Of a stretch of 64,000 nt of DNA, positions 5,838 to 63,711 are shown piece after piece (positions within the stretch are counted from its first letter, which is position 1; every line of letters begins with the position of its first letter). The position numbers were made by a program, and so were the translations under genes. Under the pieces are notes generated by a model that did no database searches, was not told the DNA's origin, and saw nothing but the letters and a program-made list of their open reading frames with translations. Source of the stretch: Burkholderiaceae bacterium (GTDB taxonomy: Bacteria > Pseudomonadota > Gammaproteobacteria > Burkholderiales > Burkholderiaceae_C); assembly GCA_023954035.1 (NCBI GenBank), contig JAMLIT010000008.1, positions 26,506 to 90,505 of the forward strand. Direction: 5' to 3'.

Positions 5838-6839
5838 ATGACCGGAAGGCAAACGAACACCATGCAGCGCGAGAGCTTCAGCGTCACGGCGCGCTTCGCC
5901 CAGGCCCTGGTCGAAGCCATTGCACGCCAGGGCGGGCAAGTGCCCGAGGCTTTGCGGCCGGGTAGGACGCAGGAGGGGCGGGTGGACATGGCGCGCCAGG
6001 AGGCGCTTTGGGCGCTGTTCGTCGAGGCCTGTGCGGACGATCCGCTGGCCGCGCTGCGCCTGGGCACGGATCTGCAGGCCGGGCACCTGGACATCGTGGG
6101 CATGCTGCTGCTCAGCTGCGACACCCTGGGCGATGGCCTGGAGGTGCTGACCGAATACGCGCCCATCATTGGCGACAACGCCCATTTCGAGGTGGCTGCG
6201 CTGGCAGACCCAGTGCAACTGCGCTATGTGCCAGGCTATGTGCTGTACCAGCAGCAGCGGGTGGAGGCGACGCTCGGCTGCGTGGTGAGCCTGGCGCGCT
6301 GGATGACGAGTGGCCGCTTTCGGGCGCGCGAGGTGCTGCTGGCGCACGCTGCGCGCACCGACGCTGCGGACTACGAGGCGTTGCTGGGCTGCCCCGTGCG
6401 TTTCGGCCAGCCGGTGAATGCCGTGTGCATGGACGCTTCCGAGCTGAACCATGCGCTGGTGCAGGTCAGCAGCACGCTGCACCAGCATCTGCGCGTCCTG
6501 GCCGACGGCATGCTGGCGTCGCTGGTGCAGGACGGTGTTTCGGCGCGGGTCCAGCAATGGGTACGCGCACACCCCCGCTGGGGCAAGGAGCGCATTGCCG
6601 AGCAACTGGGGATGAGCGGGCGCCACCTCAACCGCAAGCTGGCTTTGGAGGCCATTTCCTTCAAGGGACTGCGCGAAGCCCTGCTGCACGACATGGCCCT
6701 GCAGGCCTTGCGCGACGGCCAGAAGATTGCTGCAGTCAGCGAGGCCCTGGGCTTTTGCGACGAGAACGCGTTTTCACGGGCCTTTCGCCGCTGGACCGGG
6801 CAGTCGCCAGCGCAGTATCAAAAAACAGAAAGAAAATAG
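5838..6839 (+). CDS. AraC family transcriptional regulator (arabinose-binding-like N-terminal domain)
   Basis: A 333-residue DNA-binding regulator. The N-terminal 220 residues resemble the ligand/dimerisation domain of OruR/ArgR-type AraC proteins (GHLDIVGMLLLSCDTLGDGL). The C-terminal 90 residues hold two helix-turn-helix units (RIAEQLGMSGRHLNRKL and AVSEALGFCDENAFSRAFRR) and the usual ending RRWTGQSPAQYQ. Start uncertain: ATG 5838 is used; ATG 5862 (MQRESFS) is also possible, with ggaagg upstream. It is divergent from the BASS-epimerase-propeller-MFS operon, the usual layout for a local activator. A copy of the dispersed palindromic repeat overlaps its stop codon. Confidence 0.9.
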   Translation: MTGRQTNTMQRESFSVTARFAQALVEAIARQGGQVPEALRPGRTQEGRVDMARQEALWALFVEACADDPLAALRLGTDLQAGHLDIVGMLLLSCDTLGDGLEVLTEYAPIIGDNAHFEVAALADPVQLRYVPGYVLYQQQRVEATLGCVVSLARWMTSGRFRAREVLLAHAARTDAADYEALLGCPVRFGQPVNAVCMDASELNHALVQVSSTLHQHLRVLADGMLASLVQDGVSARVQQWVRAHPRWGKERIAEQLGMSGRHLNRKLALEAISFKGLREALLHDMALQALRDGQKIAAVSEALGFCDENAFSRAFRRWTGQSPAQYQKTERK

Positions 6840-6892
6840 CCTCTAGCGCTTATGCAGCAAGCTCTTGCAGCTCTCATTTCAAGAGCATATCG
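6832..6892 (-). repeat. Dispersed palindromic repeat, copy 1
   Basis: Read on the minus strand it contains agagctgcaagagcttgctg followed by cataagcgctagaggct. This matches the core agctgc-ttgcgc-N-aagcgctagaggc found at seven other places in the window. It covers the stop codon of the AraC gene and fills the gap to the convergent yceI-like gene, where its hairpin could act as a terminator. Confidence 0.75.
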
Positions 6893-6906
6893 CCTGGCCC
6901 GCAGGC

Positions 6907-7470
6907 CTATCGTTTCGCCGCTTCGATCTGCACCACCAGGCGCACCTGCTTGGGCATGCCCATGGCGACGAGGTAGTCCATGCCCCACTGCGTTCGGTCG
7001 ATGCCGCCCGTGAAATCACCGCCACACACCTCGGCCTTGAGCATGGGGCTCTGATAGCAGTTGAACTGCGTGGCGCTGAGCACCAGCGGCCCCGTCTTGC
7101 CCAGCAGCGTGAGCTGGCCGTGCACCTTGGCTACCCGGTCGCCATCGAACTCGAAGCGGTCGGAAACAAAGCGCATTTCCGGGTACTTGGCCGTGTGGAA
7201 CAGGTCGGCGCTTTGCAGGTGTTTGTCGAACTCTGCCGACCCGCTGTGCACGGAGGTGGTGTCCACGCGCACGTCCACCTTGCCGCTTCTGGCAGCCCGG
7301 TCGAAGTCAATGCTGCCGCTCGTCTTCTCAAACTGTGCGCGGTTGGTCGAGGTACCGAAATGGCCGATCTCGAAGGCCACATACGTGTGGTGGGGGTCGA
7401 TGGCGTACTCGGCAGCCAGGGCCGGGCCGGTGGCGATGAACAGGGCGGCGAGGGCGAATGGGGTGCGCAT
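6907..7470 (-). CDS. YceI family periplasmic protein
   Basis: A 187-residue exported protein of the YceI lipocalin-like fold (isoprenoid-binding in characterised members). An N-terminal signal peptide ends at about residue 21 (MRTPFALAALFIATGPALA). It is followed by AEYAIDPHHTYVAFEIGHFG, the typical first strand, and later by VDVRVDTTSVHSG and FHTAKYPEMRF. The ATG at 7470 has an AGGAG box 6 bp upstream. It stands alone between the AraC gene and hemY on the minus strand. In this family the role is usually stress-related or unknown. Confidence 0.92.
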   Translation of the reverse strand: MRTPFALAALFIATGPALAAEYAIDPHHTYVAFEIGHFGTSTNRAQFEKTSGSIDFDRAARSGKVDVRVDTTSVHSGSAEFDKHLQSADLFHTAKYPEMRFVSDRFEFDGDRVAKVHGQLTLLGKTGPLVLSATQFNCYQSPMLKAEVCGGDFTGGIDRTQWGMDYLVAMGMPKQVRLVVQIEAAKR

Positions 7471-7534
7471 GGGTTCTCCTTGGAATGGGGCAATGGTGAG
7501 GCAGCGGTGCTGCGACATGGCGCCGCGCCCGGAC

Positions 7535-8815
7535 TCAGGCGACGTCCTGCGCCGCGCTTTTCCAGGCCGCCAGGGCGCCTTCAAGATCGCCGCGCCGCTC
7601 GGCCAGTTGGGCCAGGTGGCGCCAGGCATGGGTGCGCAGGCCGGCGTCTTGCAGCTTCGGCGCTGCTTGACTGAGCAGTTGCTGCGCCTTGCCCCAGAGC
7701 TGGCGCTGCATGCAGGCGACTCCGGCCAGGTATTGCAGCCGCGCGTCGCGTGGATTGGCTTGCTGCGCCGCTTCGATGCGTGCCAGCCACTGCGCGTCCA
7801 GGCTCTCGAGCGCGGTTTCCAACGCACGCACCAGTCGCCGTGCGTCGAGATCGCCGAGGTCGCCCGGGCGCTCCACCAACTGCTGCCACACCGGCTCCAG
7901 CCAGCGGCGCACCTGCGCTGGCTCGCCGCCGAGCTCGGCCAGGCGCTGTGCAGCGTGAATGGCCAGTTCGGGCATGTCGCGCTCGGCCGGATCGAGCGCC
8001 ATCCAGTGGGCGGTGAGTTGATCGGGGTCATGGGCGTTGCGGATCAGCTCGGTGGCCAGGCCGCGCACGATGCTTTGCGCCGCCGCCGGGGAAAACGCCC
8101 GGTGCTTGCCCAGCAGGCGCGCGGTGTCCAGCGCCGCCTGCGTTTGCTGCGCCAGGCGCGTGGCCTTGAGCCTGATGCGAAGCGCCAGCGTGCGCCGCGC
8201 CGCGCCCTGTGACAGGCTGGCCAGGCGTTCGAGTGCGGCCAGCGGCTCGCGGTCGTCCAGCGCCCAGCGTGCGGCCCGCAGTTGCGTTCCTTCCTGAAGT
8301 TCCAGCGGCCGCGCCGCTTCGCTGCCCTCGGGCGCGGCCAATGCCTGTTGAAGATGCAGGTCGCGGGCACTGCGGTCCTGCAGCGCGTGCGAGGCGTCCG
8401 CCGCCACCAGATGCGACATGACGCGCAGCGCCTCGCCCTGGGGCACAGCGGTGCCGCCGCTGCGCAGGCTGGCTTCCTGCTCCAGCGCGGCCTGCGCGGC
8501 CTTGCGCGAGCGCAGGAAGCGTCCGCTCATGAGTTGGGCCAGCGCGTCCAGCAGGGCTCCGTGCATGGCGCGTTCCTTTTGCTGCAAGCGCCAGCGCTGC
8601 GCCTGGCGGGGCAGGGCCACCAGCGCGGCCAGGGCCCGCAGAGCGGCGTAGAGCGTGGTGAAAGCCAAGGCCAGCGCCAGCAGAACGAAGTTGAGCGACA
8701 GGTCGAGCCGCCAGGGTGGCCAGAAGATGGTGACCGTGCCCTGGTTGTTGCCGGCAAACAAGGCCGACGCCACTGCCACGGCAAACAGCGCCAGGAGCCA
8801 CAGCGTTGCGCGCAT
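7535..8815 (-). CDS. hemY: HemY, haem biosynthesis-associated membrane TPR protein
   Basis: A 426-residue inner-membrane protein. Two N-terminal hydrophobic segments (LWLLALFAVAVASALFAG and FVLLALALAFTTLYAALRAL) form the HemY_N domain, including GNNQGTVTIFWPPWRLDLSL. A long alpha-helical TPR-like region with many Ala/Leu/Arg residues follows to the C-terminus. In Escherichia coli the gene lies in the hemCDXY operon, and its product is linked to regulation of late haem synthesis; its exact biochemical role is not settled. ATG 8815 is used because the membrane segment starts immediately; the frame upstream to 8890 lacks protein-like composition. It lies downstream of hemX, with an unusually long 246-bp gap. 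Confidence 0.9.
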   Translation of the reverse strand: MRATLWLLALFAVAVASALFAGNNQGTVTIFWPPWRLDLSLNFVLLALALAFTTLYAALRALAALVALPRQAQRWRLQQKERAMHGALLDALAQLMSGRFLRSRKAAQAALEQEASLRSGGTAVPQGEALRVMSHLVAADASHALQDRSARDLHLQQALAAPEGSEAARPLELQEGTQLRAARWALDDREPLAALERLASLSQGAARRTLALRIRLKATRLAQQTQAALDTARLLGKHRAFSPAAAQSIVRGLATELIRNAHDPDQLTAHWMALDPAERDMPELAIHAAQRLAELGGEPAQVRRWLEPVWQQLVERPGDLGDLDARRLVRALETALESLDAQWLARIEAAQQANPRDARLQYLAGVACMQRQLWGKAQQLLSQAAPKLQDAGLRTHAWRHLAQLAERRGDLEGALAAWKSAAQDVA

Positions 8816-8969
8816 GTCAGTGCTCCGCGGCGCTGCGCGCAACCCGCATGGCATGAAACCGGCGCGGCCCAGGCGTGGGCAGCCGCGCAAGGGCCGCCCC
8901 GCCGCGCTGGCTGCGTTCCCCTGCCCGCACTGCGCAGCAATGCGAGAGCGGGGGCTGAGGGCCGCGGCT

Positions 8970-8993
8970 CCAGGCCTGCCTGCGCAGGCCTGG
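8970..8993. other. Strong hairpin in the hemX-hemY gap
   Basis: ccaggcctg (8970-8978) and caggcctgg (8985-8993) form a perfect 9-bp stem with a 6-nt loop. There is no T-run on either side, so it is not a classical terminator. It could lower read-through, or protect mRNA ends between hemX and hemY. The rest of 8816-9061 holds no credible gene. Confidence 0.5.
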
Positions 8994-9061: not shown

Positions 9062-10138
9062 TCATCTTCCGGCCGCCGCCGTGGCGAGCGCGGACAGGGT
9101 TTCGTCGAGGCGCGGGGCTTCGGCCGTCTTGAGGTGCGCCTGAATCTGCTGCAACGCGGTGGCCGCGGTCTGGGTGCGGCGCGCCGCCGGGTCAAAGTAT
9201 TTGTTGAGCGCCGTGCTGGCGGTGAGCAGATCGGAGCGCGCGGCATCGAGCTGGCGCGCCAGAATGCCCAGGCGGGCGTTGAGGAGCATGAGTTTCAGGT
9301 TCTCGCGCAGGAAAAAGGCCTGGTCGGGCGAAATCAGAATGGCTTCGGGCTGGTCGATGCGGCGCACGCGCACCAGGCCGCGCAATTCCTCCTTCACGGC
9401 CTCCCAGCCACGCTGAAGCGGCGCCATCCAGACGGGCAGCATGGAAGCAGGGTCGGCGGCGGAGCCTGGCCCCGAGCTTGGCCGCGCGCTGGCTGCAAGA
9501 CGCTGCGTGGCTGCGGCCTGGGCCACGGCGTTCTTGAGCGGCAGCTCGTCCACCTGGCGCAGCAGTTCGTCCAGGCGCGCCAGCAGGCCGGCGGTGTCGG
9601 TGACGCTGGCGCTGGCCAGGCGTTCCAGATCCAGCGCCAAGGCACGCTGCACCGGGGCGAGGCGCGGCTGGGCGGCGCGGTCGATGCGCTGCTGCGCGCT
9701 TTTGAGCGCCGCCACCAGGGGCTGCATGCTGCCGGTCAACTGGGCCTGCTGCTGGGCCAGGCGCAGGTTGGCCTCGATGTCGACCACCAGGTTCTCGTCG
9801 CGCGATCGCGAGAGGCTTTGCATCAGTTCTTCGAGCTGGTTGCGCTGCAGGGCGACTTCGCTCAGGCGCGTCTCCTGCACCGCCAGACGCGCGGCCGACT
9901 CCTGTGCCAGCTCGCTCGCCTGGCGTGCCAAAGCGCGCGCCTCGATGGCCTGGCGCCCGGCATCCTGGCTTTGCTGCGCCAGCGCTTGCTGGATGTTGCC
10001 GAGCTTTTGCCACATCAGCAGGCTGCCGGCAACTCCGATCAGTGCCAACACGGCCACCAGCACCAGCGCCCAGCCCAGCAGGCGGTTGCTGCTCAGGGGC
10101 GCGGCGGAAGCGCCGGCGGAATCGACGGAATGGCTCAT
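9062..10138 (-). CDS. hemX: HemX-like uroporphyrinogen-III C-methyltransferase-family membrane protein
   Basis: A 358-residue protein with one N-terminal membrane anchor (LLGWALVLVAVLALIGVAGSL). A long coiled-coil, rich in Gln/Ala/Leu, follows (about residues 45-170), then the HemX C-terminal segment with VRRIDQPEAILISPDQAFFL, typical of the family. Despite the old name it has no methyltransferase motif; it is thought to scaffold haem-pathway enzymes. The start ATG at 10138 (MSHSVDSAG) overlaps the hemD stop by 4 bp, so the two are translationally coupled. Confidence 0.9.
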   Translation of the reverse strand: MSHSVDSAGASAAPLSSNRLLGWALVLVAVLALIGVAGSLLMWQKLGNIQQALAQQSQDAGRQAIEARALARQASELAQESAARLAVQETRLSEVALQRNQLEELMQSLSRSRDENLVVDIEANLRLAQQQAQLTGSMQPLVAALKSAQQRIDRAAQPRLAPVQRALALDLERLASASVTDTAGLLARLDELLRQVDELPLKNAVAQAAATQRLAASARPSSGPGSAADPASMLPVWMAPLQRGWEAVKEELRGLVRVRRIDQPEAILISPDQAFFLRENLKLMLLNARLGILARQLDAARSDLLTASTALNKYFDPAARRTQTAATALQQIQAHLKTAEAPRLDETLSALATAAAGR

Positions 10139-10938
10139 GCCGCGGATTCTATAGACGCCGCCACGTCGGCCAGAGCCGGCCGGCACGCCAGAACCTGGCC
10201 AAAACCCGCAGCGCGCGCGGCCTGCCCGATGCGTGGGTGCGTGACCAAGGCGCGGGCGCCCGCCCACGATTGCTCGGGCAGGGCCTGGCGCAGGTGCTCC
10301 AGCGCCTGCGTGCTGCTCAGCACCCACAGCGAGCCATCGGTGGCGCCAGCCTGGGCCAGCGCCCGCTGCTGCGGGCTCCAGGGCGGCGCGGTGCGGGTGT
10401 AGGCAACGACAAAATCCACGGCGCCGCCGGCGGCGCGGATCTGCTCGCTCAGCCAGTCGCGGCCCGTGCCGGTGTCGCCGCTGTCGGGTTCCGCGCCGCG
10501 AACGATCAGCACGCGGTTGCCCGGCCGCACATGGGGGCCCACCGTCTTCCACAGCGATTCGGAATCGAACTGGCCGGCGTCGGCCGCGGGCTGGTCAATG
10601 CGCCCTGGCGGCACGCCCAGAGCCTGGAGCATGGCGGCCGTGCCGGGGCCGGGCGCCCAAACTCTTGTTTTGATAGCTGCTTGCGCTTGCTGGATAAGCG
10701 CTAGGGCCTGATTTGATCCAAAAAAATGTCGCGCTGCGCTGCCGCTGACCACCATCAGCGCGTCGTAGTCGCCCAGATATTCCTGCGCGCGGGCAAGCGC
10801 CTGCGGGTCGGGCGCGCCGGCGATGCAGATCAGCGGCAGGGCGCAGGCGGCAATGCCGCGCGCGGTCAGCGCCTGCACCCAGTGCGAGGCCTCGGGTTCC
10901 GGGCGCGTGATGAGGGCGCGGAGCGGGGCGGCCGACAT
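10135..10938 (-). CDS. hemD: Uroporphyrinogen-III synthase
   Basis: Cyclises hydroxymethylbilane to uroporphyrinogen III in the cytoplasm. The 267-residue protein has the family's weakly conserved two-lobe pattern: ALITRPEPEASHW at the start, ALMVVSGSAARHFF in the first lobe, and WVLSSTQALEHL with ALVTHPRIGQAARAAGF in the second. It lies 14 bp after hemC and overlaps hemX by 4 bp. Odd: a copy of the window's dispersed palindromic repeat (10662-10726) lies inside the frame and encodes roughly ALALIQQAQAAIKTRVW, an added or altered surface segment in the first lobe. The frame remains open through it. Confidence 0.93.
   Translation of the reverse strand: MSAAPLRALITRPEPEASHWVQALTARGIAACALPLICIAGAPDPQALARAQEYLGDYDALMVVSGSAARHFFGSNQALALIQQAQAAIKTRVWAPGPGTAAMLQALGVPPGRIDQPAADAGQFDSESLWKTVGPHVRPGNRVLIVRGAEPDSGDTGTGRDWLSEQIRAAGGAVDFVVAYTRTAPPWSPQQRALAQAGATDGSLWVLSSTQALEHLRQALPEQSWAGARALVTHPRIGQAARAAGFGQVLACRPALADVAASIESAA
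10662..10726 (+). repeat. Dispersed palindromic repeat, copy 2, inside hemD
   Basis: Contains ttgatagctgcttgcgcttg followed by ctggataagcgctagggcc, then a tract of six a's. The order of parts (T-rich left end, tagctgcttgcgc, aagcgctag, A-rich right end) is the same as in the intergenic copies at 19967 and 21205. Here it is translated in frame. Confidence 0.8.
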
Positions 10939-16026: not shown

Positions 16027-17220
16027 TCAATTCCCCAGCAGCTCCCCCACCGCGTGCAGGTCTTCCACGCGGTCGCACACCGCTTTGACGGCCATCATGA
16101 TGGGGATGCCCAGCAACAGCCCCCACAAGCCCCAGAGCCAACCCCAGGCCAGGACGCTGACGAACACCGCCACCGGGCTCAGGCTGCTGGCGCGGCTGGT
16201 GAGCCAGGGCGTGAGCAGGTTGCCCACCAGGGTGTGGATCACCAGAGAGGCGCCGCCAATCGCAAAGGCCATGTCGAGGGTGCCGAACTGCAGAAACGCC
16301 ACCAGTGCCGAGGCACCGGTGACGATGAGCGAGCCGATGTAGGGCGCCAGGTTGAGCACGCCCGCAATCACCCCCCAGACCGCGGCGTTGTCCAGGCCCA
16401 GCGCGGCATAGGCCAGCCCTGTGGCGACACCGACGACAGCGCTGGTGACCACCTGCACCAGCAGATAGCGCTGCACCTGGCCGTTGATTTCGTCGATGAC
16501 CTGCAAGGTCACCTTGCGCCGCGCCAGGCTGGGGCCGGCGATGCGCATCAGCTTGTGGCGAAAGGTGTCGCCCGCGGTCAGGGCGAAGAAGCTGAGAAAC
16601 AGGACGATGGTCAGCTGCCCGAGCACCGACATCAAGCCCATGGTGCCGCTCCAGAGGTAGTCCCGGACGTTGAGCGGGCTGCGCTCGATCTGCACGCGCT
16701 GCACGCCGCGCCGGGCGACCGAGGGGGCGGAGGTCTCGGCCGCGGCCTGCTCGATTTGCGCTGCTGCTTTTTGCACCGTCTCGATCGGGCTGGGCTGGCG
16801 GGCACGTTCGCGCATCTTGTCGCGCACTTTCGAGGCAGCCTTGGGCAGTGAGTCGACCACCTGCGAAGCACCGTCGCTCAACTGGTACACGGTCCCCGCG
16901 AGGGAACCGGTCAAGGACAGAAGCAGGACGGCTGCCGAGACGGCCCGGGGAACGCGGTGGCGGTGCAGTCGGCTTACCACCGGCGAGAGCGCGCAGATCA
17001 TCAGCGCGCTCATGGCAATCGGGATGAACACCGCCGCCGCCCAGTGCAGCACGGCCAGCACCGCGCACAAGGCGATCAGGGCCAGCGAGGCGCTGCGCAC
17101 GCCGACGGGCAGGTGGACCGGGATGGCCTGCGCCGGGCGCTCGACCGGGGTGAGCACCACCGCGCCATCGCCTTCGCACGGCGGGGTGGGGGCTGGCGCG
17201 CTGGGGCTGGGTTCGCTCAT
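16027..17220 (-). CDS. AI-2E transporter family permease
   Basis: A 397-residue inner-membrane protein of the AI-2E/PerM family (PF01594-type). A proline-rich cytoplasmic N-terminus is followed by two hydrophobic segments, a charged soluble loop (about residues 115-190), and five or more C-terminal membrane segments. Family motifs include LNLAPYIGSLIV and the closing LLLGIPIMMAVKAVCDRVEDL. Members export small molecules or ions; the label AI-2 exporter applies to only a few of them and cannot be assumed here. Monocistronic on the minus strand. Confidence 0.9.
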   Translation of the reverse strand: MSEPSPSAPAPTPPCEGDGAVVLTPVERPAQAIPVHLPVGVRSASLALIALCAVLAVLHWAAAVFIPIAMSALMICALSPVVSRLHRHRVPRAVSAAVLLLSLTGSLAGTVYQLSDGASQVVDSLPKAASKVRDKMRERARQPSPIETVQKAAAQIEQAAAETSAPSVARRGVQRVQIERSPLNVRDYLWSGTMGLMSVLGQLTIVLFLSFFALTAGDTFRHKLMRIAGPSLARRKVTLQVIDEINGQVQRYLLVQVVTSAVVGVATGLAYAALGLDNAAVWGVIAGVLNLAPYIGSLIVTGASALVAFLQFGTLDMAFAIGGASLVIHTLVGNLLTPWLTSRASSLSPVAVFVSVLAWGWLWGLWGLLLGIPIMMAVKAVCDRVEDLHAVGELLGN

Positions 17221-18630: not shown

Positions 18631-19368
18631 ATGGATCGCATGCCTCCACCCATCCTCCACCTCCGGGCACTCGCGCCTTTGCTGGCTGCCGCGCTGCTGG
18701 GCGCGTGCGGCACCCTGGATGTGCCGCGTGCCGACAACTACCCTGCCACCGGCCAGAAAAAGGCGCGCGCCGTGCACCATTGGGACGTGCTGGCCGGCGA
18801 CGTGGCCACGCGGGTGGTGGAGAAAATATCCGAATGGCCAAAGGGCGACTACCCCATTCATGTCACCGTGCCCGACAACTCCAGTTTCAACCAGGGTTTT
18901 CTCAAGCTCTTGCGGGTGCAGCTGCTCGACCGGGGCGTGGTCCTGTCCACCGTGCCGACGGCGGTCGAATTGCAGGTTCAGACGCAGTTGGTGCAGCACG
19001 GTGCCGATGTGCCGCGCAGCCTGCCCATTCCCCTGGGCGGGACAATGCTGGGGGCAGGCGTGGGCGTATGGCGCGACTGGAAGGAGCATTACTCCAACCG
19101 CGTGCTGCTGCCTGGCGCCGCCACCGCCATCGGTATTGGCGCGGGCCTGGCCCTGGATATCGCGCATCTCTATACCCAGGGCGCGGCAGCAGGCGGCCCC
19201 ACCCGCACCGAGGTGCTGATTACCACCACCCTCACAAGCCATGACCGCTACCTGGCAGGCTCGGCAGACATGTATTACATCGAGCGGGACGATGCCGTGC
19301 TGTACCAGCCTGAGCTGCCCGCAGCGCCGCCCACCCCGGTCAAAACCTGGCTGGTGGTCAAGCCATGA
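18631..19368 (+). CDS. Putative outer-membrane lipoprotein coupled to a FlgO-like protein
   Basis: A 245-residue lipoprotein with lipobox LLGAC at about residues 22-26 (ATG 18631; ATG 18640 is also possible). The mature part contains PIHVTVPDNSSFNQGFLKLLRVQLLDRG-type sequence, a Gly-rich stretch (PLGGTMLGAGVG), and a second hydrophobic Gly/Ala segment (AIGIGAGLALDIAHL). No named family is recognised with confidence. The stop overlaps the start of the FlgO-like gene by 4 bp, so the two are co-translated and probably act together in the outer membrane. Confidence 0.75.
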   Translation: MDRMPPPILHLRALAPLLAAALLGACGTLDVPRADNYPATGQKKARAVHHWDVLAGDVATRVVEKISEWPKGDYPIHVTVPDNSSFNQGFLKLLRVQLLDRGVVLSTVPTAVELQVQTQLVQHGADVPRSLPIPLGGTMLGAGVGVWRDWKEHYSNRVLLPGAATAIGIGAGLALDIAHLYTQGAAAGGPTRTEVLITTTLTSHDRYLAGSADMYYIERDDAVLYQPELPAAPPTPVKTWLVVKP

Positions 19369-19966: not shown

Positions 19967-20024
19967 CACCGGGTGCGCTTCTGTTTTTATAGCTAACAGC
20001 GCTTGCTGAATAAGCGCTAGAGGC
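19967..20024 (+). repeat. 58-bp direct repeat, left copy, containing dispersed repeat copy 3
   Basis: caccgggtgcgcttctgttt through aagcgctagaggc is identical to 21205-21262. The inner tagctaacagcgcttgctga-ataagcgctag is the dispersed palindrome. Weaker similarity continues for about 50 bp to the right in both copies (gaaatttt-cgctggttt). Confidence 0.9.
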
Positions 20025-20032
20025 AGAAAATA

Positions 20033-20254
20033 CTGAAATTTTCGCTGGTTTTGTTCTCGGCCGGTACCCGCACCGGTGGTCGCGTGGTGTGCAGCGCCAA
20101 CCCCGTACCGCAGGGCGCCAACGCTACCTGCACCGCCACGCCCATCGTAGTTGAGCGCTTTATCAGCTTGGGCGGTCAATGCAGTGGCACCACCCTGTCT
20201 TGTACATGCTTGACAGAGTGCAAATCGACGGGTCCACAACCGCTTTGGGTCTAA
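20033..20254 (+). pseudogene. Remnant of an IPTL-CTERM-type surface protein (A)
   Basis: One open frame reads TGGRVVCSANPVPQGANATC, then TATP, then GGQCSGTTLSCT. This is the Cys-containing repeat module that normally precedes IPTL-CTERM tails (pattern G-V-x-C-x-PVPxGxxxTCTATP-x-CSGT-LSCTLT). There is no ATG start or signal peptide, and the frame ends in CKSTGPQPLWV instead of a sorting signal. It therefore looks like a truncated, decayed gene. Remnant B at 21561 carries the missing tail. Confidence 0.65.
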
Positions 20255-20275
20255 ATTGGTCGGCATTCCCCATAG

Positions 20276-20290
20276 AATCACTTTGTGATT
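20276..20290. promoter_or_regulatory. Inverted repeat upstream of an IPTL-CTERM gene
   Basis: aatcac-ttt-gtgatt is a perfect 6-3-6 inverted repeat lying 34 bp before the start codon at 20325, where the untranslated leader or promoter should be. It could be an operator half-site pair or a small leader hairpin; no known regulator box was recognised. Confidence 0.35.
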
Positions 20291-20324
20291 TAGGACACAT
20301 CAACTCAACCGGAGGAGAACTGCC

Positions 20325-20924
20325 ATGAACAACTTGAAAGATGCCTTTGCCGCGATAGTGCGACAGCCCGTGCGCCTGCTGCTCGTGCTGACTGTGGCAC
20401 TGACCAGCACGATGGCCGCGGCGCAGATGACGGGCCAGACCGTGCGCGCCCAGCACTACTACCCTGATCTGAGCACGACGTACAGCGCCGCAGTCGACAG
20501 CGTGGTGGGAGCTGGCGTCGAGGTCACTGGTTTTCCTGCCTCGGATCCCTGGACAAACATCGACTACTCAGCCAACTCAATCCGGATCGCTTACACCGGG
20601 GCTGCCGGATGGTCTGCAGCTACTTTCAACGGAGTGGTCTTTTCTGATCTCAACAGCACCATTCCGGCCATCACCGGCGTCACCCTCAACCCCGCCAGCA
20701 ACATGGTCGGGCTGGACGCTTCGCGGCTCACCTTTACCGCCGACACGGTTTCGATCAACTGGCAAAACCTGGCTTTCGATGCCAGCACCGTGGTGGTGCT
20801 CGACCTGAGCTTTGCCAACGGGGGCGCAGCCACGCCCGTGCCGACACTGTCCGAATGGATGTTGATCGTCCTGATGCTGATGGTGGCAGCTGTCGGAATC
20901 ACCTGGACACGCCGGCGCCACTGA
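20325..20924 (+). CDS. Exported protein with IPTL-CTERM-like sorting signal (2)
   Basis: A 199-residue protein. The signal peptide (hydrophobic stretch LLLVLTVALTSTMAAAQ after a basic start) is followed by a beta-type domain of about 135 residues (YSANSIRIAYTGAAGWSAATF). The C-terminus is PVPTLSEW - hydrophobic - TWTRRRH, a variant of the IPTL-CTERM signal with Val for Ile. A strong ggaggag box precedes ATG 20325. It sits 955 bp upstream of exosortase H, its presumed processing enzyme, between two copies of a 58-bp direct repeat. Ectodomain function unknown. Confidence 0.88.
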   Translation: MNNLKDAFAAIVRQPVRLLLVLTVALTSTMAAAQMTGQTVRAQHYYPDLSTTYSAAVDSVVGAGVEVTGFPASDPWTNIDYSANSIRIAYTGAAGWSAATFNGVVFSDLNSTIPAITGVTLNPASNMVGLDASRLTFTADTVSINWQNLAFDASTVVVLDLSFANGGAATPVPTLSEWMLIVLMLMVAAVGITWTRRRH

Positions 20925-21560
20925 ATCGCTACACCACGAAGACGTGCGTTCGCCGCGGCAGGGTCTTCGCCGCGGCAGGCCCACTCTTGACGGGCGAAAC
21001 GCCCCAGCGTCTGAACGCTTTCTTCTGCGGACGAGGTGGAACGCCAGCAACGGCTTGCCACCAAAGCCTTCCGGCAAATTCAACACTGCTCGACGGATAG
21101 GTGTTTCAGCCAGATGGAGCCAAGTCAAGCACGGGTTTTGGGCCACCCAAGGCCTTTGACCTGCGCAGCTTGATTGGGGGCCGCCGACCCCGGCTGCTGC
21201 CATGCACCGGGTGCGCTTCTGTTTTTATAGCTAACAGCGCTTGCTGAATAAGCGCTAGAGGCCAAAAACATCCGAAATTTCCGCTGGTTTAGCTCTTGGC
21301 CGATCCCGCCAGAATCTGCACAGGCGGCAGGCGCAGCACCGGATTTCTCTCGCTTGCTAGCAAGCAGGCTCTGGCGCTGCTGCATGGATACAAATTCGCA
21401 TGCCGATGCAAAAAATACCGCCACGGGCCCGGGGCCTGCGCAGCGCGAAGTGCTGGTGATCTGAGGCAAGGGCGCTTGCTTCGCCTTGTTTTGCATCAAC
21501 AGCCATCAAACAAACGCTTGGCGTAAACGCCAGGGCTTGGCTTGTTACCCAGACACATAA
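20925..21560. other. Gene-free stretch with repeats
   Basis: Between the second IPTL-CTERM gene and remnant B. It holds a near-perfect tandem of ttcgccgcggcagg (about 20949-20979) and the right-hand 58-bp direct repeat (21205-21262). A stretch after 21265 is weakly similar to the start of remnant A. No intact gene was seen; the short frames are not protein-like. Confidence 0.55.
21205..21262 (+). repeat. 58-bp direct repeat, right copy, containing dispersed repeat copy 4
   Basis: Identical to 19967-20024 over 58 bp, a distance of 1238 bp. It includes the dispersed palindrome tagctaacagcgcttgctga-ataagcgctagaggc. The two copies bracket remnant A and the second IPTL-CTERM gene. Confidence 0.9.
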
Positions 21561-21785
21561 AATGTTACAGGCTATGTTGCCCTCGCTCCAGCGTGTGGCA
21601 GTCAATTCAGCGGCACCGCCCTGTCTTGCACCCTGACCGCAGTAACCGCACCGGCCAGCGTCACGGCGCAATTTGCGCCGCAGTCCGCGTCGGCGCAGGC
21701 CATTCCGACCCTGGGGGAATGGGCTATGCTCCTGCTCTCGGGCCTGATGGGTATTGCCGCATTGGGAGTCTTGCGCAGGCGGTGA
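21561..21785 (+). pseudogene. Remnant of an IPTL-CTERM surface protein (B), C-terminal part
   Basis: The frame after a stop at 21558 reads GYVALAPACGSQFSGTALSC, then TLTAVTAPASVTAQF, then AQAIPTLGEWAMLLL, and ends GVLRRR. It is a full IPTL-CTERM tail (IPTLGEW, hydrophobic helix, Arg cluster) with the preceding Cys module, but it has no start codon, signal peptide or N-terminal domain. It is the decayed 3' end of a once complete exosortase H substrate. It lies 94 bp before the exosortase gene, where a substrate gene is often found. Confidence 0.75.
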
Positions 21786-21879
21786 TGGGCGGAAAGGGCG
21801 GCTGCATGGCGCGCTGTCCGCCTTGCCGTACGTTGCGGCGGCGGTGCTCTGGCGCTGCCTTGCATGAACTTTTTGACTT

Positions 21880-22398
21880 ATGGTGCGTTTCCTCGGAATT
21901 TTTGGCGTCTCGCTGCTGGTGCTGTTTCGCATCGACATGCTCGACAGCGTTCAGCGCACGGTAATCGCCCCGTGGTCAGACTGGCTTGCCGTCGTCAGTG
22001 GGTTGTTGATGACGCCGTTTGACTCCGATGTCATGCATTCGGGGCGATTGCTCTACAGCAAATCGACGGGTTTTGCCGTGTCCATCGAAGCGGGGTGCAA
22101 TGGCATCGAGGCGGCCATCGTGCTGCTTGCGGGTGTCTTGGCCTTCCCTGCCACCTGGGCGCAAAAGGCCTGGGGTTTTATTGCTGGGTTTGGCACGATT
22201 CAGGTGGCCAACTTGCTGCGTATCATCAGCTTGTATTACCTGGGGCGATGGAACATGGAGTGGTTTGAGTTTGCCCATCTCTATTTGTGGCAGGCGTTGA
22301 TCATGCTCGATGTGCTGGTGGTCTGGTTGCTATGGATTCGCTGGGTGGGCCGGAACGCGGTACAGGCCAAAAACGCCCCAACTGCCCATGCGATCTAA
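21880..22398 (+). CDS. xrtH: Exosortase H (IPTL-CTERM-specific sorting transpeptidase)
   Basis: A 172-residue polytopic inner-membrane protein of the exosortase/archaeosortase family. The catalytic residues are in place: Cys73 in EAGCNGIEA, Arg114 in NLLRIISLYYLG and His133 in FAHLYLWQ. It cleaves the IPTL-CTERM tail of exported proteins; substrates here are the genes at 14921 and 20325. The short length, the loop sequences and the adjoining partner gene fit the XrtH type. No clear ribosome-binding site is visible before ATG 21880. It overlaps the next gene by 11 bp. Confidence 0.92.
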   Translation: MVRFLGIFGVSLLVLFRIDMLDSVQRTVIAPWSDWLAVVSGLLMTPFDSDVMHSGRLLYSKSTGFAVSIEAGCNGIEAAIVLLAGVLAFPATWAQKAWGFIAGFGTIQVANLLRIISLYYLGRWNMEWFEFAHLYLWQALIMLDVLVVWLLWIRWVGRNAVQAKNAPTAHAI

Positions 22399-23020
22399 TT
22401 CTTTGCCCCTTTTTTTGCTGCTTTCTGTGGCCGGGCTGCTCTGCCTGATGCCCATTTGGTACTTTTTTCTGGCGCCCTGGCTGGCCGCTCCGGTTTTCTA
22501 CCTGGCGGGGGAGGCCGTATCGAATGCATTTCACTGGGTGGTGACCTACGAGCGCACGGGAAGCAAGGGCACCCTGTTGACGAGCCTGCAGTTCATTGCC
22601 GAACAAGGGCAGGGCCGGACCGGAAAGCTGGCTCCGGTGGCGGATTATCGGATGCACGGCTATGGCTTGGTCATGCTGTGGGCCATGTTGCTGGCCTCGC
22701 GTCCTGCCGCTCTGTGGCGCAAGCTATTTCTGGGAACCGGGGTGATGCTGTTCATTGCGGCTTCGGGGGTGACGCTGCAATGGCTCAACGATATTTTCAA
22801 TCGGTCTGGCCCCCACGTGCTGGCGCAAACGCGCGCGTCCGCTGTGCTGGCAGAAGCCGTGGAGTTCGGTTTTCACTTCAACCTGTTTGTTTTTACCGCT
22901 CTTGCGCCCCTGCTGTTGTGGGTGGTGATGAACCGCGCATTTGTGCAGGCGCTGTGGAATGATGCAATAAAGGCTCCAGCACCGGCGGGACAATCCGACG
23001 AAACCGGACAGGCCGATTGA
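22388..23020 (+). CDS. Exosortase H-associated membrane protein
   Basis: A 210-residue protein with about four hydrophobic segments (FLLLSVAGLLCLMPIWYFFL, MLWAMLLASR, LFLGTGVMLFIAASGV, LFVFTALAPLLLWVVM). It is the second gene of the xrtH operon, starting inside the xrtH 3' end (ATG 22388, 11-bp overlap). Proteins of this size and topology regularly follow xrtH and are presumed to help substrate processing; no catalytic motif is seen. Convergent with flhC, 35 bp apart. Confidence 0.8.
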   Translation: MRSNSLPLFLLLSVAGLLCLMPIWYFFLAPWLAAPVFYLAGEAVSNAFHWVVTYERTGSKGTLLTSLQFIAEQGQGRTGKLAPVADYRMHGYGLVMLWAMLLASRPAALWRKLFLGTGVMLFIAASGVTLQWLNDIFNRSGPHVLAQTRASAVLAEAVEFGFHFNLFVFTALAPLLLWVVMNRAFVQALWNDAIKAPAPAGQSDETGQAD

Positions 23021-23055
23021 CGCTGCCGCGGCGCTGCGGCTGCACACGCCTGGGT

Positions 23056-34518: not shown

Positions 34519-34574
34519 GCTGCCCGCCGCTCACGGTGTGCAGCAGCCCTTTTTTCACTTCAAGCGAGCAAGAC

Positions 34575-36618: not shown

Positions 36619-36740
36619 TGGCCTGAGGTGAGCCTTCTCAAACCAAATATTTTGACGCTCGAAAGAATTTCTTCGGCGGTCTTGGCCGAGACCCACGGCT
36701 TGGGCAACGCCTCCCTTCTTTCACTTCAAGTGAGCAAGAC

Positions 36741-44891: not shown

Positions 44892-47489
44892 TCAAGCGCC
44901 CGGCATTGCTGCCTTGAGCTGGTACAGCACGTCCAGCGCCTCGCGCGGGCTGAGCTTGTCGGGGTCGATGGCGGCCAAGGCGGCTTCGACGCGGCTGGGC
45001 GTGGGCATGTCGGGGGCGGGCGGCGGGGCAAACAAGTCCACCTGCAGCTTGCCCTCGCCGGCGCGCGCCTCCAGGGCTTCGAGTGCGTGGCGGGCGTGGT
45101 TGAGCACGGCGGCGGGCATGCCGGCGAGTTTCGCAACCTGGATGCCATAGCTGCGGCTGGCGGGGCCGGGGGCGATTTCGTGCAGGAAGACGATGTCGTT
45201 GCCTGATTCGGCCGCGCTCACATGCATGTTGACCGCGTGGCGCGCCTTGGCGGGCAGTTCGGTCAGCTCGAAGTAGTGCGTGGCAAACAGGGTGAAGGCG
45301 CGCGTCTTGTCGTGCAGCTGCGTGGCAATGCTGCCGGCCAGCGCCAGGCCGTCAAAGGTGCTGGTGCCGCGGCCGATTTCGTCCATCAGCACCAGGCTGT
45401 GCGGCGTGGCGGCGTGCAGGATTTGCGCGGCCTCCAGCATCTCCAGCATGAAGGTCGATTGGGCGTTGGCCAAATCGTCCGCCGCGCCAATGCGGGTGTG
45501 GATGGCGTCGATGGGCCCCAGCCGGCAACTGGCGGCCGGCACATGGCTGCCGATGCTGGCGAGCAGAACGATGAGCGCCACCTGGCGCATGTAGGTCGAT
45601 TTGCCGCCCATGTTCGGGCCGGTGATGACCTGCATGCGCGTGTTGGCGTTCAGGCGTGTGCTGTTGGCGATGAAGGCGCCGCTCGACGTTTCCGCCAGGC
45701 GCGCTTCCACCACCGGGTGGCGGCCGGCTTCGATCTCGATACAGGGCTCGGCCACAAGCTGCGGCGCGCACCAGTTCAGCGTGAGCGAGCGCTCGGCCAG
45801 GCAACACAGCACGTCCAGCGTGGCCAGCGCCTCGGCCAGGCGGGTGAGCGCCGGCACATGGGGCTGGAGCTGCGCCAGCACTTGGTCGTAAAGCCACTTT
45901 TCGCGCGCCAGCGCCCGCTCGGAGGCCGACAGCGCCTTGTCTTCAAACGCCTTGAGCTCGGGTGTGATGAAGCGCTCGGCGTTCTTGAGCGTCTGGCGGC
46001 GGCGGTAGTCCTCCGGCACTTTCCCGATCTGGCTGCTGGTGACTTCGATATAGAAGCCGTGCACCTTGTTGAATTGCACGCGCAGGTTGGCGATCCCGCT
46101 CTTCTCGCGTTCGCGCGCTTCCAGATCCAGCAGAAAGGAGTCGCAGTTGGTCTGGATGGCGCGCAGTTCGTCCAGCTCGGCGTCAAAGCCGCTGGCGATG
46201 ACGCCGCCGTCGCGCACCAGCGCGGCCGGCTCGGGGGCGATGGCGCGCGCCAGCAAGGCGGTGCAGTCGGCGGGCGGCGTGAGGGCAGCAAAAATATGAG
46301 CCAAATAGGGCTCTAGCGCTTGTCTTGATTGCGCTAGCAGCTCTGTTTTTTGTAGCGTCTGGCCCAACGCCAGCAACTCGCGCGGGCGCACCTGGCCAAG
46401 GGCGACGCGGGCCGTGATGCGTTCCACGTCGCACACGCCCTTGAGCGCGGCGCGCAGGCGCGTCCAGCTGCCGCCCTCGCGCAGCGCAGTCGTGGCCGAC
46501 AGGCGCGCGCGCGCCGGTGCGCGGTCGCGCTCGGGCTCCAGCAGCCAGCGGCGCAGCAGGCGGCTGCCCATGCCGGTCATGCAGGTGTCGAGCAAGGAGA
46601 ACAGCGTCGGCGCGTCGTCGCCGCGCAGCGTCTTGACGAGTTCAAGGTTGCGCCGGGTGGTGGCGGGCAGGTCGATCAGTTCGCTGCCCCGCTGCACGCG
46701 CAGGCTGTGGATGTGTGTGAGCGGCCGGCCCTGGGTGTGCTCGGCGTAATGCAAGAGCGCGGCGGCCGCCGCCTGGGCCTCGTGCAGCTCGTGCGCGCCA
46801 AAGGCCTGCAGCGTGGCGACCTGCAGGTGCGCGAGCAGCGTGCGCTCGCCCAGCGCAGCATCAAACTGCCAGTCGGGGCGCGGCGCCAGCGGGCAGCCCA
46901 AAGCGCCTTGCTGGCGCAGGGTTTGGAGGTGGTGCTCAAAGCGCTCGGTAACGCCGGCGCTGTAGATCAGTTCGCTGGGCGCAATGCGGGCCAGCCAGGC
47001 GGGCAGTTCGTCCAGCGCGCACTCGGCCAGCAGCACGCAGCCCTGCGTCACGCTCAACCACGCCAGGCCGCAGCGCGCGCGCTTGCCGGCGTGCACAGCG
47101 AGCAGGGTGGACTCCTGCTTGTCGGACAGCAGTTCGGTGTCCGTCAGCGTGCCGGGCGTGACCACGCGCACCACCTTGCGCTCCACCGGACCCTTGGCAG
47201 CGCCGACCTCGCCCACCTGCTCGCAAATGGCGACCGATTCGCCCAGCTTGATGAGCCTCGCCAAATAGCCTTCCAGTGCATGAAAGGGAACGCCTGCCAT
47301 GGTCACCGGCTCGCCCGCCGACTGGCCGCGCTGGGTCAGCGTGATGTCGAGCAGGCGCGCGGCTTTTTCGGCGTCGGCGTAAAACAGCTCGTAGAAGTCG
47401 CCCATACGGTAGAGCAGCAGCGTATCCGGGTAGCCCGCCTTGAGGGCAAGGTACTGCTGGATCATGGGGGTGTGGGCGATGTCGGGCAT
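44892..47489 (-). CDS. mutS: DNA mismatch repair protein MutS
   Basis: An 865-residue mismatch-recognition ATPase. The N-terminal DNA-reading motif is [18 protein letters not shown]; the ATPase has Walker [15 protein letters not shown], Walker [17 protein letters not shown] and the signature [14 protein letters not shown] 47489 gives [14 protein letters not shown]. Odd: a copy of the dispersed repeat (46289-46355) lies in the core/lever region and is read in frame as about [20 protein letters not shown]. The frame is intact, so the protein is probably functional. Divergent from the c-di-GMP operon. Confidence 0.98.
46289..46355 (-). repeat. Dispersed palindromic repeat, copy 6, inside mutS
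   Basis: On the minus strand: a purine-rich left end, then agagctgctagcgcaatcaa, then gacaagcgctagagcc, then a T-rich right end. Same order of parts as the intergenic copies, here in frame within mutS. Confidence 0.75.
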
Positions 47490-50284: not shown

Positions 50285-55211
<4,927 letters not shown>

Positions 55212-55222
<11 letters not shown>

Positions 55223-57388: not shown

Positions 57389-58201
57389 ATGAAAACCCGC
57401 TTCATCCTGCTTCGTACCAGCCACGCCGGCAACGTGGGCGCCACCGCCCGCGCCATGAAAACCATGGGCTTTGGCGATCTGGTGCTGGTGGCCCCGCGCT
57501 GGCCCAACGTCTTGCGGCGCGAGGAAACCATCCAGCGCGCCAGCGGCGCCCTCGACGTGCTGGAGAACGCGCGCATCGTCGCCACGCTGGACGAGGCGCT
57601 CGATGGCGTCAGCCACCTCTGCGCCACCGCCATGACACCGCGCGATTTTGGCCCGCCCACGGTGGCGCCGCGCGCGCATTTCGAATCGCTATTGAAAGAG
57701 GAGCTGCTTGAGCATGAACAGCAAGCGTCAGAGGCCAAAAACAATCAAAATCGGGCCTTTCCCGATGCCTTGGAAGCCGCTTCGCGTTCCCTGGCGGGTG
57801 TCGCCTTTCTGTTCGGTTCCGAGCGTTTTGGCATGGCCAACGAAGACGTCTACCGCTGCCATGCGGCGCTCTCCATTCCCGCCAACCCGCATTTTGGTTC
57901 GCTCAACCTGGCCGCAGCCGTGCAGCTCATTGCCTACGAGTGGCGCCAGGCCTTGGGTGGCTACCCGGTGCGCAGCAGCACAGCGCCCGCGCAGATCGCC
58001 GACGCGCAGCAGCTGGCGGGCATGCTGGCGCACTGGGAGCAAGCGCTCGCTGCCATCGGTTTTCTGGACCCGGCCGCACCCAAAAAGCTGATGCCGCGCC
58101 TGAACCAGCTGTTCAACCGCGCGCAGCCGACGCAGGAGGAAATCCACATCTTGCGCGGTGTCGCCAAGGCCATGATCGAGAGCGCGCAGCCGAAGCGCTA
58201 G
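57389..58201 (+). CDS. trmJ: tRNA (cytidine/uridine-2'-O-)-methyltransferase TrmJ
   Basis: A 270-residue SPOUT methyltransferase that modifies position 32 of tRNAs. Features: [20 protein letters not shown], the SAM-knot region [19 protein letters not shown] and [19 protein letters not shown] degenerate copy of the dispersed repeat falls at 57688-57752 and encodes about [20 protein letters not shown], a segment between the two halves of the domain. The frame is unbroken. Upstream is suhB in the opposite direction; cysE follows by 34 bp. Confidence 0.93.
57688..57752 (+). repeat. Probable dispersed palindromic repeat, copy 7 (degenerate), inside trmJ
   Basis: gaggagctgcttgagcatga, then acagcaagcgtcagaggcc, then aaaaacaatcaaaat. 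It follows the order and spacing of the other copies (agctgcttg...aagcg-agaggc-A-rich) but has lost the full AGCGCTAG core. Confidence 0.5.
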
Positions 58202-60249: not shown

Positions 60250-60282
60250 CGGTGCAAAGGGGTGAAAATCAGGGAACAGGCC

Positions 60283-61552: not shown

Positions 61553-61626
61553 GTGGAAATCCGGGGGGTGGGCGGCCCGTGCTGTGGCCCGTGGGTGCGG
61601 TGGCGGCAAGTATCATAGCCCTCGCC

Positions 61627-63015: not shown

Positions 63016-63020
63016 GGGCG

Positions 63021-63656
63021 ATGGCACAGCAGCGTGTCTGCCTGCGCGAACCCATTGCGGACATCGTGCAGGCCGCTGCGCTCCTCGATCATGCCGTGAC
63101 CGCTCACTTGCTCGGCCGTACTGACGAAGCTGAGCATTTGATCAGCCAGGCCGACATGCCGAAAGTCTGGGAATGGACGGAATCCATCCTGGGGAAAAAT
63201 AGTCCCCATGCGATACCCGATGGTTCTTGTCGTGAACCCAGTCTCCCCCTTGCGCTGCGGACGCCTGCGCGCATGCCGAGCATGCAGGAAAAGTCCTGGC
63301 TCCATGCGCGGGATGGCTACCACTGCCGGTTCTGCGGTATTCCCGTTATTCGCTCCGAAATTCGCGAAAAAATCCGCCGCGTCTATCCCGGTGCCGTGCG
63401 CTGGGGCAAGCGCAACGCGGAACGGCACGCGGCGTTCTTTGCTCTGTGGGTGCAGTACGATCATTTGCTGCCGCATGCCAAGGGCGGCGGCAATGAGCTC
63501 TCGAACCTGGTCGTTACCTGTGCCGCCTGCAACTATGGGCGTGGCGGTTACACGCTGGAGAAGATGGGTCTTTGCAATCCGCTGGACAGGCCCCCGATCC
63601 AGTCGCCATGGGATGGGCTAGAGCGTTTTGATCGGGCAACTCGGCGATTGGGGTAA
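63021..63656 (+). CDS. HNH endonuclease
   Basis: A 211-residue protein with a C-terminal HNH nuclease: the Cys pair C102/C105 (CRFC), a His in the catalytic stretch YDHLLPHAKGGGNELSNLVV (H148, H152), and a second Cys pair C167/C170 (CAAC). The first 80 residues resemble no known domain (IVQAAALLDHAVTAHLLGRT looks helical). It is 5 bp after pmbA and on the same strand. Its role (restriction, repair or mobile) is undetermined. Ends at the dispersed repeat. Confidence 0.85.
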   Translation: MAQQRVCLREPIADIVQAAALLDHAVTAHLLGRTDEAEHLISQADMPKVWEWTESILGKNSPHAIPDGSCREPSLPLALRTPARMPSMQEKSWLHARDGYHCRFCGIPVIRSEIREKIRRVYPGAVRWGKRNAERHAAFFALWVQYDHLLPHAKGGGNELSNLVVTCAACNYGRGGYTLEKMGLCNPLDRPPIQSPWDGLERFDRATRRLG

Positions 63657-63711
63657 AAATTCCATCCAACGCATCAGGGATATGCGTTGGTAGCTCTCAA
63701 ATAAAGAGCTC
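63655..63711 (-). repeat. Dispersed palindromic repeat, copy 8 (variant)
   Basis: ccaacgcat and atgcgttgg form a perfect 9-bp stem around 63665-63689, followed by agctct-N-agagct. On the minus strand it reads gagagctaccaacgc, the same framework as the other copies but with the AGCGCTAG arms changed to CAACGC/GCGTTG. It lies between the HNH gene and the convergent dehydrogenase gene, where it could act as a bidirectional terminator. Confidence 0.6.

What the first reader, a model, noticed from the sequence alone, without database searches (positions are those of the whole stretch)
6832..63711. Eight-member palindromic repeat family, placed in frame inside hemD, mutS and probably trmJ
Copies at 6832, 10662, 19967, 21205, 31062, 46289, 57688 and 63655 share a layout: T/A-rich end, agctgcttgcgc, short spacer, aagcgctagaggc, A/T-rich end. 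Five are intergenic. Two clear copies and one degenerate one lie in frame inside conserved genes (hemD, mutS, trmJ), where they encode short Gln/Ala/Leu-rich segments. No transposase is linked to any copy, so the family looks like REP or MITE DNA that can be exapted into coding sequence. Such elements are common in this bacterial group, but translated copies in core genes are notable.
Basis: partly seen in the sequence, partly recalled or inferred. Interest (0 to 1): 0.7.

Follow-up and report, generated by a model that had tools for sequence, protein, structure and literature searches.

The report
Conserved 68-bp repeat inside core genes
A 68-base DNA repeat found in hundreds of copies in relatives of Acidovorax has kept its place in genes such as mutS and hemD across genera, which looks less like inserted junk DNA and more like a chromosome-wide docking site for a protein not yet identified.

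Summary
The family is real. A sequence-only model finds 7 of the 8 window copies at 33.9 bits or more; the eighth (63655) is half a copy. The genome has 197 sites within one mismatch of the 13-base core against 4 for the reversed pattern.

The hemD (antisense), mutS and trmJ copies are confirmed and lie at orthologous positions across genera. Only trmJ looks like an insertion, and only against distant outgroups; mutS shows none.

The element behaves as a conserved duplex-DNA site rather than decaying mobile DNA:
- 34 of 35 testable places carry it between the same flanks in a sister species.
- Its fixed columns differ at 8.0%, its variable columns at 24.8%.
- A and T interchange where G/C are excluded; the stems show no covariation.
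- mutS and hemD, but not trmJ, keep rare codons that spell the element.
- A three-genome clade nested among bearers has almost none.

Transposase (RAYT-type) presence does not track it. Pfam DUF1010 is partly its translation. Best reading: binding site of an unidentified lineage-specific protein, mostly at gene 3' ends. The binder is inferred, not shown.

The parts
6821..6889 (-). Full copy between convergent genes, overlapping the 3' end of the AraC-like gene at 5862-6839
   Evidence: R1 52.6 bits; gene calls; same place in G012, G018 and G007
10661..10722 (+). Full copy inside hemD, antisense to the gene
   Evidence: R1 42.7 bits; same position in hemD of the bearers fetched
10135..10938 (-). 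hemD (uroporphyrinogen-III synthase) carrying a copy
   Evidence: Pfam HEM4, E 4e-21
19976..20042 (+). Full intergenic copy, first of a locally duplicated pair
   Evidence: R1 60.1 bits; shared flank with 21214
21214..21280 (+). Full intergenic copy, second of the pair
   Evidence: R1 61.6 bits
31061..31128 (+). Full intergenic copy
   Evidence: R1 33.9 bits
46291..46358 (-). Full copy inside mutS, sense
   Evidence: R1 44.6 bits; rare codons kept across bearers
44892..47489 (-). mutS carrying a copy in the MutS domain III region
   Evidence: Pfam MutS domains; gene call
57685..57751 (+). Degenerate full-length copy inside trmJ, sense
   Evidence: R1 34.9 bits; same position in 22 of 24 bearers (my count)
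57389..58201 (+). trmJ (SpoU-family tRNA methyltransferase) carrying a copy
   Evidence: Pfam SpoU_methylase, E 1.5e-20; PDB TrmJ matches
63679..63710 (-). Half copy, model positions 4-35 only
   Evidence: R1 13.4 bits, E 0.0027

Best explanation
The element is a 68-bp duplex-DNA site, present roughly 400 times per genome by extrapolation, bound by an unidentified, lineage-specific DNA-binding and probably DNA-bending protein. Two short motifs (ATAGCT, and AGCGCTT-N-AAGCGCTAGAGGC) and blocks that must be A or T, but need not be either one, are held at fixed spacing. Most sites lie just behind stop codons, in either orientation, where a bound complex could act on chromosome topology or stop transcription; a few lie inside genes, where the coding sequence carries the site at the cost of rare codons. 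Shown: the family, its location, vertical inheritance, nucleotide-level constraint, lack of base-pair covariation, near-complete absence from one nested clade. Inferred: that a protein binds it, that DNA is bent, and what the complex does.
For: In 24 copies shared with G012, fixed columns differ at 48 of 600 sites and variable columns at 178 of 719; 21 of 24 copies go that way. Even a halved neutral rate leaves 48 against 74 expected, P 0.0004. A/T columns are 89-99% A or T, mostly with both letters common, and in orthologues A-T exchanges are 14 of 33 changes there against 29 of 178 in variable columns. Stem pairs occur as often as independent columns predict. Conserved rare codons: mutS 6 of 23 element columns against 16 of 814 elsewhere, hemD 4 of 21 against 2 of 235. 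34 of 35 places are shared with G012. 37 of 45 intergenic copies lie within -25 to +50 nt of a stop codon; in tandem gene pairs 18 are oriented with the genes and 13 against. G002, G005 and G008 (0, 2 and 1 copies) form one clade among bearers.
Against: No binding protein was sought by experiment or found. trmJ shows no conserved rare codons (0 of 22 against 4 of 229) and has drifted. Raw synonymous identity is raised only in hemD. Column classes were defined on the G000 copies, some of which are in the orthologue test (partly met). The A/T-block test has few changes (33), and the flanks are G+C-rich. A/T periodicity near 10.5 bp is not strong in the mean profile. The position of the element-free clade within the bearers has support 0.648 only.
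Confidence: 0.58

Rival explanations
1. REP/REPIN- or MITE-type mobile DNA: an old family spread by a transposase, now mostly fixed, with some copies translated and tolerated or exapted.
For: High copy number, palindromic core, intergenic bias, abutting stop codons, a local duplication; trmJ longer than in distant outgroups; elements lie at some synteny breaks; a weak 13.2-bit partial match lies near the one Y1 transposase gene.
Against: One clear absence in 35 places; constraint on individual copies; rare codons kept in mutS and hemD; Y1 transposase genes occur with and without the element, and G003 has none; mutS copy is not an insertion.
Confidence: 0.25
2. RNA-level element: a 3'-UTR hairpin or terminator that acts in the transcript.
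For: Location behind stop codons; mean folding energy -14.7 kcal/mol, with 26 of 91 copies below z = -2; two G004 copies are near-perfect hairpins followed by a T run.
Against: No covariation; median z only -1.04; 18 against 13 orientation in tandem pairs; AAA and TTT interchange in the block behind the core; sense copies inside mutS and trmJ.
Confidence: 0.1
3. A gyrase or topoisomerase site like E. coli BIME-2.
For: 3'-end location and A/T blocks around a G/C-rich core; BIME-2 elements and regions downstream of transcription units are associated with gyrase in E. coli (PMC6379681, passages).
Against: The E. coli gyrase motif is 130 bp with 10.75-bp G/C periodicity on both sides; here A/T frequency is flat outside about -40 to +32. 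Gyrase is universal (recalled), so near-loss of the element in one clade is unexplained.
Confidence: 0.08

Closest known systems
Motif pairs of Acidovorax ebreus, GCTTAT(N)5AAGCG (114 copies), and Polaromonas naphthalenivorans, ATAGCT(N)22CAAAAG (125 copies); PMC5217627, passages and section 13 read
   Same: Motifs and spacing fit this element (inference, not aligned); mostly intergenic, often between convergent genes, a few in genes (5 and 18).
   Different: Reported there as unexplained motif pairs; no full element, no orthologue comparison, no account of the copies in genes in the section read.
REP/REPIN repeats with RAYT transposases (PMC8049555, abstract and outline; PMC3733652, searched for six genus names without hits)
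   Same: Hundreds of copies, palindromic core, intergenic.
   Different: Longer (68 nt), no tracking of Y1 transposase genes, no stem covariation, copies vertically inherited and constrained in place.
Rickettsia palindromic elements (PMC10969869, passages)
   Same: Repeats read in frame inside unrelated genes.
   Different: RPEs are about 150 bp and described as insertions; here copies in genes are old, shared across genera, not clearly insertions in mutS, and conserved at nucleotide level.
Beta-proteobacterial repeat element BRE (PMC3110155, passages and section 14)
   Same: Repeat of Bordetella and Comamonadaceae, some copies inside genes.
   Different: About 90 bp, 69% G+C, tandem arrays, at most 29 copies; this element is A/T-rich, single and about 400 copies.
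Pfam DUF1010 (PF06231)
   Same: Its positions 1-28 match translations of the element's minus strand; 23 of 47 matches at E up to 1 in the genome overlap element copies against 0.3 expected.
   Different: A protein family drawn from open frames that cross the repeat; whether any is a real protein is unknown.

Membership tests
REP/REPIN with RAYT | A Y1 (RAYT-type) transposase in genomes that bear the repeat | tested here: not met
   G003, 99% complete with at least 83 copies, has none at E 1e-5; element-free G002, G005 and G008 have 3-4
REP/REPIN with RAYT | Repeat copies flank the transposase gene | tested here: inconclusive
   Only a 13.2-bit, 38-nt partial match within 0.4 kb in G000; not tested in other genomes
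REP/REPIN with RAYT | Palindrome kept as a hairpin | tested here: not met
   15 stem pairs in 91 rows pair as expected for independent columns; RNAalifold covariation term 0
MITE | Terminal inverted repeats and target-site duplication with an autonomous relative | not tested
   No clean empty site was found to read a duplication from; IS elements were not surveyed
Rickettsia palindromic element-like | In-frame insertion into genes | tested here: inconclusive
   mutS no, hemD unclear, trmJ against distant outgroups only
E. coli gyrase motif / BIME-2 | 130-bp motif with 10.75-bp G/C periodicity | tested here: not met
   A/T frequency flat outside about -40 to +32; weak 10.5-11 bp power
Protein-binding DNA site | Specific binding by a protein | not testable with these tools
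   Sequence signature only
Replichore-polar sites (KOPS-like) | Orientation bias by replichore | tested here: not met
   150 best copies of G004: best two-arm statistic 44, mean of 300 shuffles 42.2
Rfam families | Match to a described RNA family | tested here: not met
   0 matches in the window; 10 further loci gave one weak hit off the element

The most novel reading that the evidence does not exclude
A chromosome-wide, lineage-specific DNA-protein system of Comamonadaceae: a few hundred 68-bp sites held by selection since before genera split, some overprinted on core genes such as mutS and hemD, recognised by an undescribed nucleoid or topology protein whose loss in the Giesbergeria anulus clade let the sites decay.
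Probability: 0.4. Interest if true: 0.82.

Novelty: new variant of a known kind. Interest (0 to 1): 0.62.

Why it matters
High-copy bacterial repeats are usually filed as REP or MITE DNA and read as junk with occasional exaptation. Here individual copies carry a selective signature down to rare codons inside mutS and hemD, so function can be asked of a repeat family directly. A nested clade that has almost none gives a subtractive route to the binder. It also warns annotators that Pfam DUF1010, including the open frame between blaOXA-2 and aadA5 on a plasmid from a human source (45.3-bit near-full copy), is at least partly the translation of a repeat.

Tried and rejected
Rfam: window at gathering threshold, 0 matches; 10 of the 40 loci then fetched by place, one weak hit off the element. 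Replichore orientation bias in the one-contig genome G004: absent. RAYT dependence: one Y1 gene in the own genome, no tracking in 60 genomes; a check made while mending this report found a 13.2-bit partial match near that gene, which I had not looked for before. Mirror-image second arm as a subfamily: most apparent mirrored hits are the same palindromic cores read on the other strand. Raw synonymous identity: raised clearly only in hemD, P 4e-5; mutS P 0.05, trmJ P 0.19. I then turned to conserved rare codons, a form chosen, with cut-offs of my own (usage up to 0.35, shared by 80%). Gyrase motif: not matched. Plasmid search with one copy: 5 records, 4 of them annotated DUF1010 at the match. 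Literature searches: (open-access papers only). For DUF1010 papers I saw the listing only. No structure prediction was run.

Rows dropped before counts; 54 of the 58 matches; the other 4 are the same elements on the opposite strand; 91 rows from 89 places, two places being read on both strands; 36 rows, which are 35 places; 29 with the element at a gap of up to 200 nt, 5 with it inside a longer gap, 1 without; 24 rows; dropped are the 6 with a gap over 200 nt (one of them without an element), the duplicate strand of L060 and 5 with both flanks over 98.5% identical. One search repeats this and then drops 5 coding pairs. One search is an earlier form with 14 pairs (core 34 of 320, variable 85 of 252, flank 206 of 1124); 20 of 91 rows had both flanks in a smaller G012 sample, all 20 with an element. 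Of 91 rows, 55 lacked one or both flanks in the G012 stretches fetched and say nothing.
Full report
WHAT IS THERE. From 45 copies in the window's genome (G000, 3.33 Mb, 76 contigs) that hold the exact 13-mer AAGCGCTAGAGGC, a 71-column alignment without gaps gives the consensus nnTTGCTATnnAATTnATAGCTnnnAGCGCTTnnnGAATAAGCGCTAGAGGCCAATTTnACTnnAAATTTn. The 13-mer columns are invariant there by selection. A model of sequence alone (R1) finds seven full copies in the window, 33.9 to 61.6 bits, and one half copy at 63679-63710 (13.4 bits); four of the seven were not in the model. The core with up to one mismatch occurs 197 times in the genome against 4 for the reversed pattern. 464 kb of G000 hold 54 copies of at least 14.9 bits, which extrapolates to nearly 400 per genome.

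WHERE IT OCCURS. Genera g5 and g11 reach the cap, g3 and g4 have 64 and 68, g10 17, g7 2, and g2, g6, g8 and g9 none; none of 24 order-level genomes has any (strict filters). In wider draws 39 of 150 family genomes match (own included), and 1 of 184 class genomes, the window's own. Equal contig lengths identify G007 with Simplicispira hankyongi, G035 with Diaphorobacter nitroreducens and G002 with Giesbergeria anulus. The hemD copy is found at its place in 45 of 80 loci brought in by HemD (best 80 of 518), among them Acidovorax, Alicycliphilus, Comamonas, Diaphorobacter, Simplicispira and Rhodoferax records, the weakest at 13.8 bits; the Giesbergeria anulus locus L355 has none (my count of rows at that position; two of the 45 lie on one contig).

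POSITION. With my own codon-model gene calls, 45 of 54 copies are intergenic: 18 between tandem genes in the gene direction, 13 against it, 11 convergent, 3 divergent. 37 of the 45 lie within -25 to +50 nt of a stop codon (counted from the rows). The other 9 lie in a gene, one of them across its end. Copies inside genes were found in hemD, mutS and trmJ and in genes with the Pfam domains of a UvrD-type helicase, a UvrA-type protein, PurK, a penicillin-binding protein, a type II secretin, an FAD oxidase/Fe-S protein and a short-chain dehydrogenase. By residue number the helicase, UvrA-type, penicillin-binding, secretin and FAD-oxidase copies lie between or before Pfam domains; those in PurK and the dehydrogenase lie inside one.

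ARE THE CODING COPIES INSERTIONS? Not simply. In mutS the stretch compared is 74 residues in the six bearers shown and in G002, G005, G008, G031, G032 and G034, 73-75 in 10 of 11 order-level genomes (79 in the other), and 82-85 in element-free G033, G026 and G030. In hemD bearers have 64-66 residues; element-free G002, G005 and G033 have 64, G031 61, G026, G030 and G032 59, G055 55, and G034 (17 copies elsewhere, none in hemD) 69. TrmJ has about 38 residues between two conserved stretches where the TrmJ structure 4xbo has about 10, but G002 and G008 have a linker of much the same length without the element. Counting rows at the expected place (E up to 5), the element is in hemD of 24 of 24 bearers, mutS of 24 of 26 and trmJ of 22 of 24 (own genome included; bearers). 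The copies are therefore older than these genera.

DNA, NOT RNA OR PEPTIDE. (a) Stems: the 15 pairs of the two palindromes pair as often as independent columns predict in 91 rows; mutual information shows chiefly local coupling, TTT or AAA at columns 16-18; RNAalifold finds no covariation. Single copies do fold somewhat better than shuffles: median z -1.04, 26 of 91 below -2. (b) A/T blocks: columns -28 to -26, 15 to 18 and 25 to 29 are 89-99% A or T, mostly with both letters common (column 26 is mostly A). In orthologous copies A-T exchanges are 14 of 33 changes in such columns, 29 of 178 in variable columns and 14 of 331 in flanks; the flanks are G+C-richer. (c) Constraint in place: in 24 copies shared with G012, fixed columns differ at 48 of 600 sites, A/T-block columns at 33 of 309, variable columns at 178 of 719 and flanks, which include coding DNA, at 331 of 2203; in 21 of 24 copies fixed is below variable, in 2 above, 1 tie. 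Four-fold sites in 86 genes differ at 0.206, median gene 0.238, so variable columns look neutral. Columns were classed on G000 copies, so I halved the neutral rate as a worst case: 48 against 74 expected, P 0.0004; without 5 coding pairs 37 against 60, P 0.0004. G000 and G012 depart from the majority base about equally, 50 and 53 times, so ascertainment is small. (d) Rare codons shared by at least 80% of bearers: mutS 6 of 23 element columns against 16 of 814 elsewhere, including CTA in 25 of 25 where CTA is 1% of leucine codons; hemD 4 of 21 against 2 of 235, including AGA in 22 of 23 where AGA is otherwise near 0%; trmJ 0 of 22 against 4 of 229. trmJ does not support nucleotide-level constraint.

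STABILITY AND LOSS. Of 89 distinct places with flanks, 35 had both flanks in the 1.68 Mb of G012 fetched; 34 have the element between them, one (L173 near 11853) does not. G002, G005 and G008 form a clade (support 1.0) inside the bearers in a MutS tree made without the element region; its exact place has support 0.648. Near-complete loss, once, is what one expects if a trans-acting partner was lost, and less so for inert DNA.

MOBILITY. The one Y1 transposase gene in G000 lies on C39; the listed full copies there are several kb away, and a 13.2-bit partial match lies within 0.4 kb. Across 60 genomes such genes occur with and without the element; G003, 99% complete, has none at E 1e-5. A local duplication made the 19976/21214 pair. 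Elements lie at some synteny breaks between the window and its relatives, which I did not test against other intergenic regions.

DUF1010. The minus strand of the element reads as positions 1-28 of Pfam PF06231 in a window frame (19.0 bits, below the curated cut-off of 25). 23 of 47 matches at E up to 1 in the genome overlap known copies, against 0.3 expected (the list of copies is the capped 150 plus 13). The DUF1010 frame between blaOXA-2 and aadA5 on an E. coli plasmid (probably an integron cassette, inference) holds a copy of 45.3 bits, model positions 3-67.

READING. The best explanation is a conserved duplex-DNA site for an unidentified protein. What the complex does is open; the 3'-end position and orientation neutrality suggest topology or roadblock functions. 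Gyrase is possible but its published motif does not fit. PMC5217627 very probably saw pieces of this family in Acidovorax ebreus and Polaromonas as unexplained motif pairs; that identification rests on motif and spacing. That nothing fuller is in print rests on the searches in open-access papers only.

Noticed in passing
L222:587-651 (plasmid NZ_KJ541071.1): A DUF1010 open frame between blaOXA-2 and aadA5 contains a near-full copy of the element (45.3 bits).
   Followed up: partly
L007, L013 and window 44892-47489: Three of about ten genes with internal copies are DNA-repair genes by Pfam (UvrD-type, UvrA-type, MutS); whether this is more than chance was not tested.
   Followed up: no
L192 around 8700-8950 (G007): A roughly 150-nt insert with inverted ends interrupts an element copy downstream of the ppc-like gene, where G012 has an intact copy and the window has other DNA.
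   Followed up: partly
window 20043-23054: About 3 kb including the second element copy lies directly behind the element in the window but is absent from G012 and G007, where the element is followed at once by the next shared segment.
   Followed up: partly
L201 near 16233-16289 and 18874-18929 (G004): Two variant copies form near-perfect long hairpins followed by a T run, as an intrinsic terminator would.
   Followed up: no
several G000 loci against G012 (C1:98888, C16:45090, C51:6788): A few regions are 99-100% identical between two genomes that elsewhere differ by about 10%, which suggests recent transfer or assembly contamination.
   Followed up: no
window 34547-34846 and 36713-37012: A 300-nt segment is repeated at 99% identity among related transport-like genes.
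   Followed up: no
window 53943-54113: A 9-bp unit is repeated in tandem inside the long open frame 50285-55222.
   Followed up: no
L001: The Y1 transposase gene is flanked by GGGGTCAGA/GGGGTCTGACCCC-type repeats of its own.
   Followed up: no
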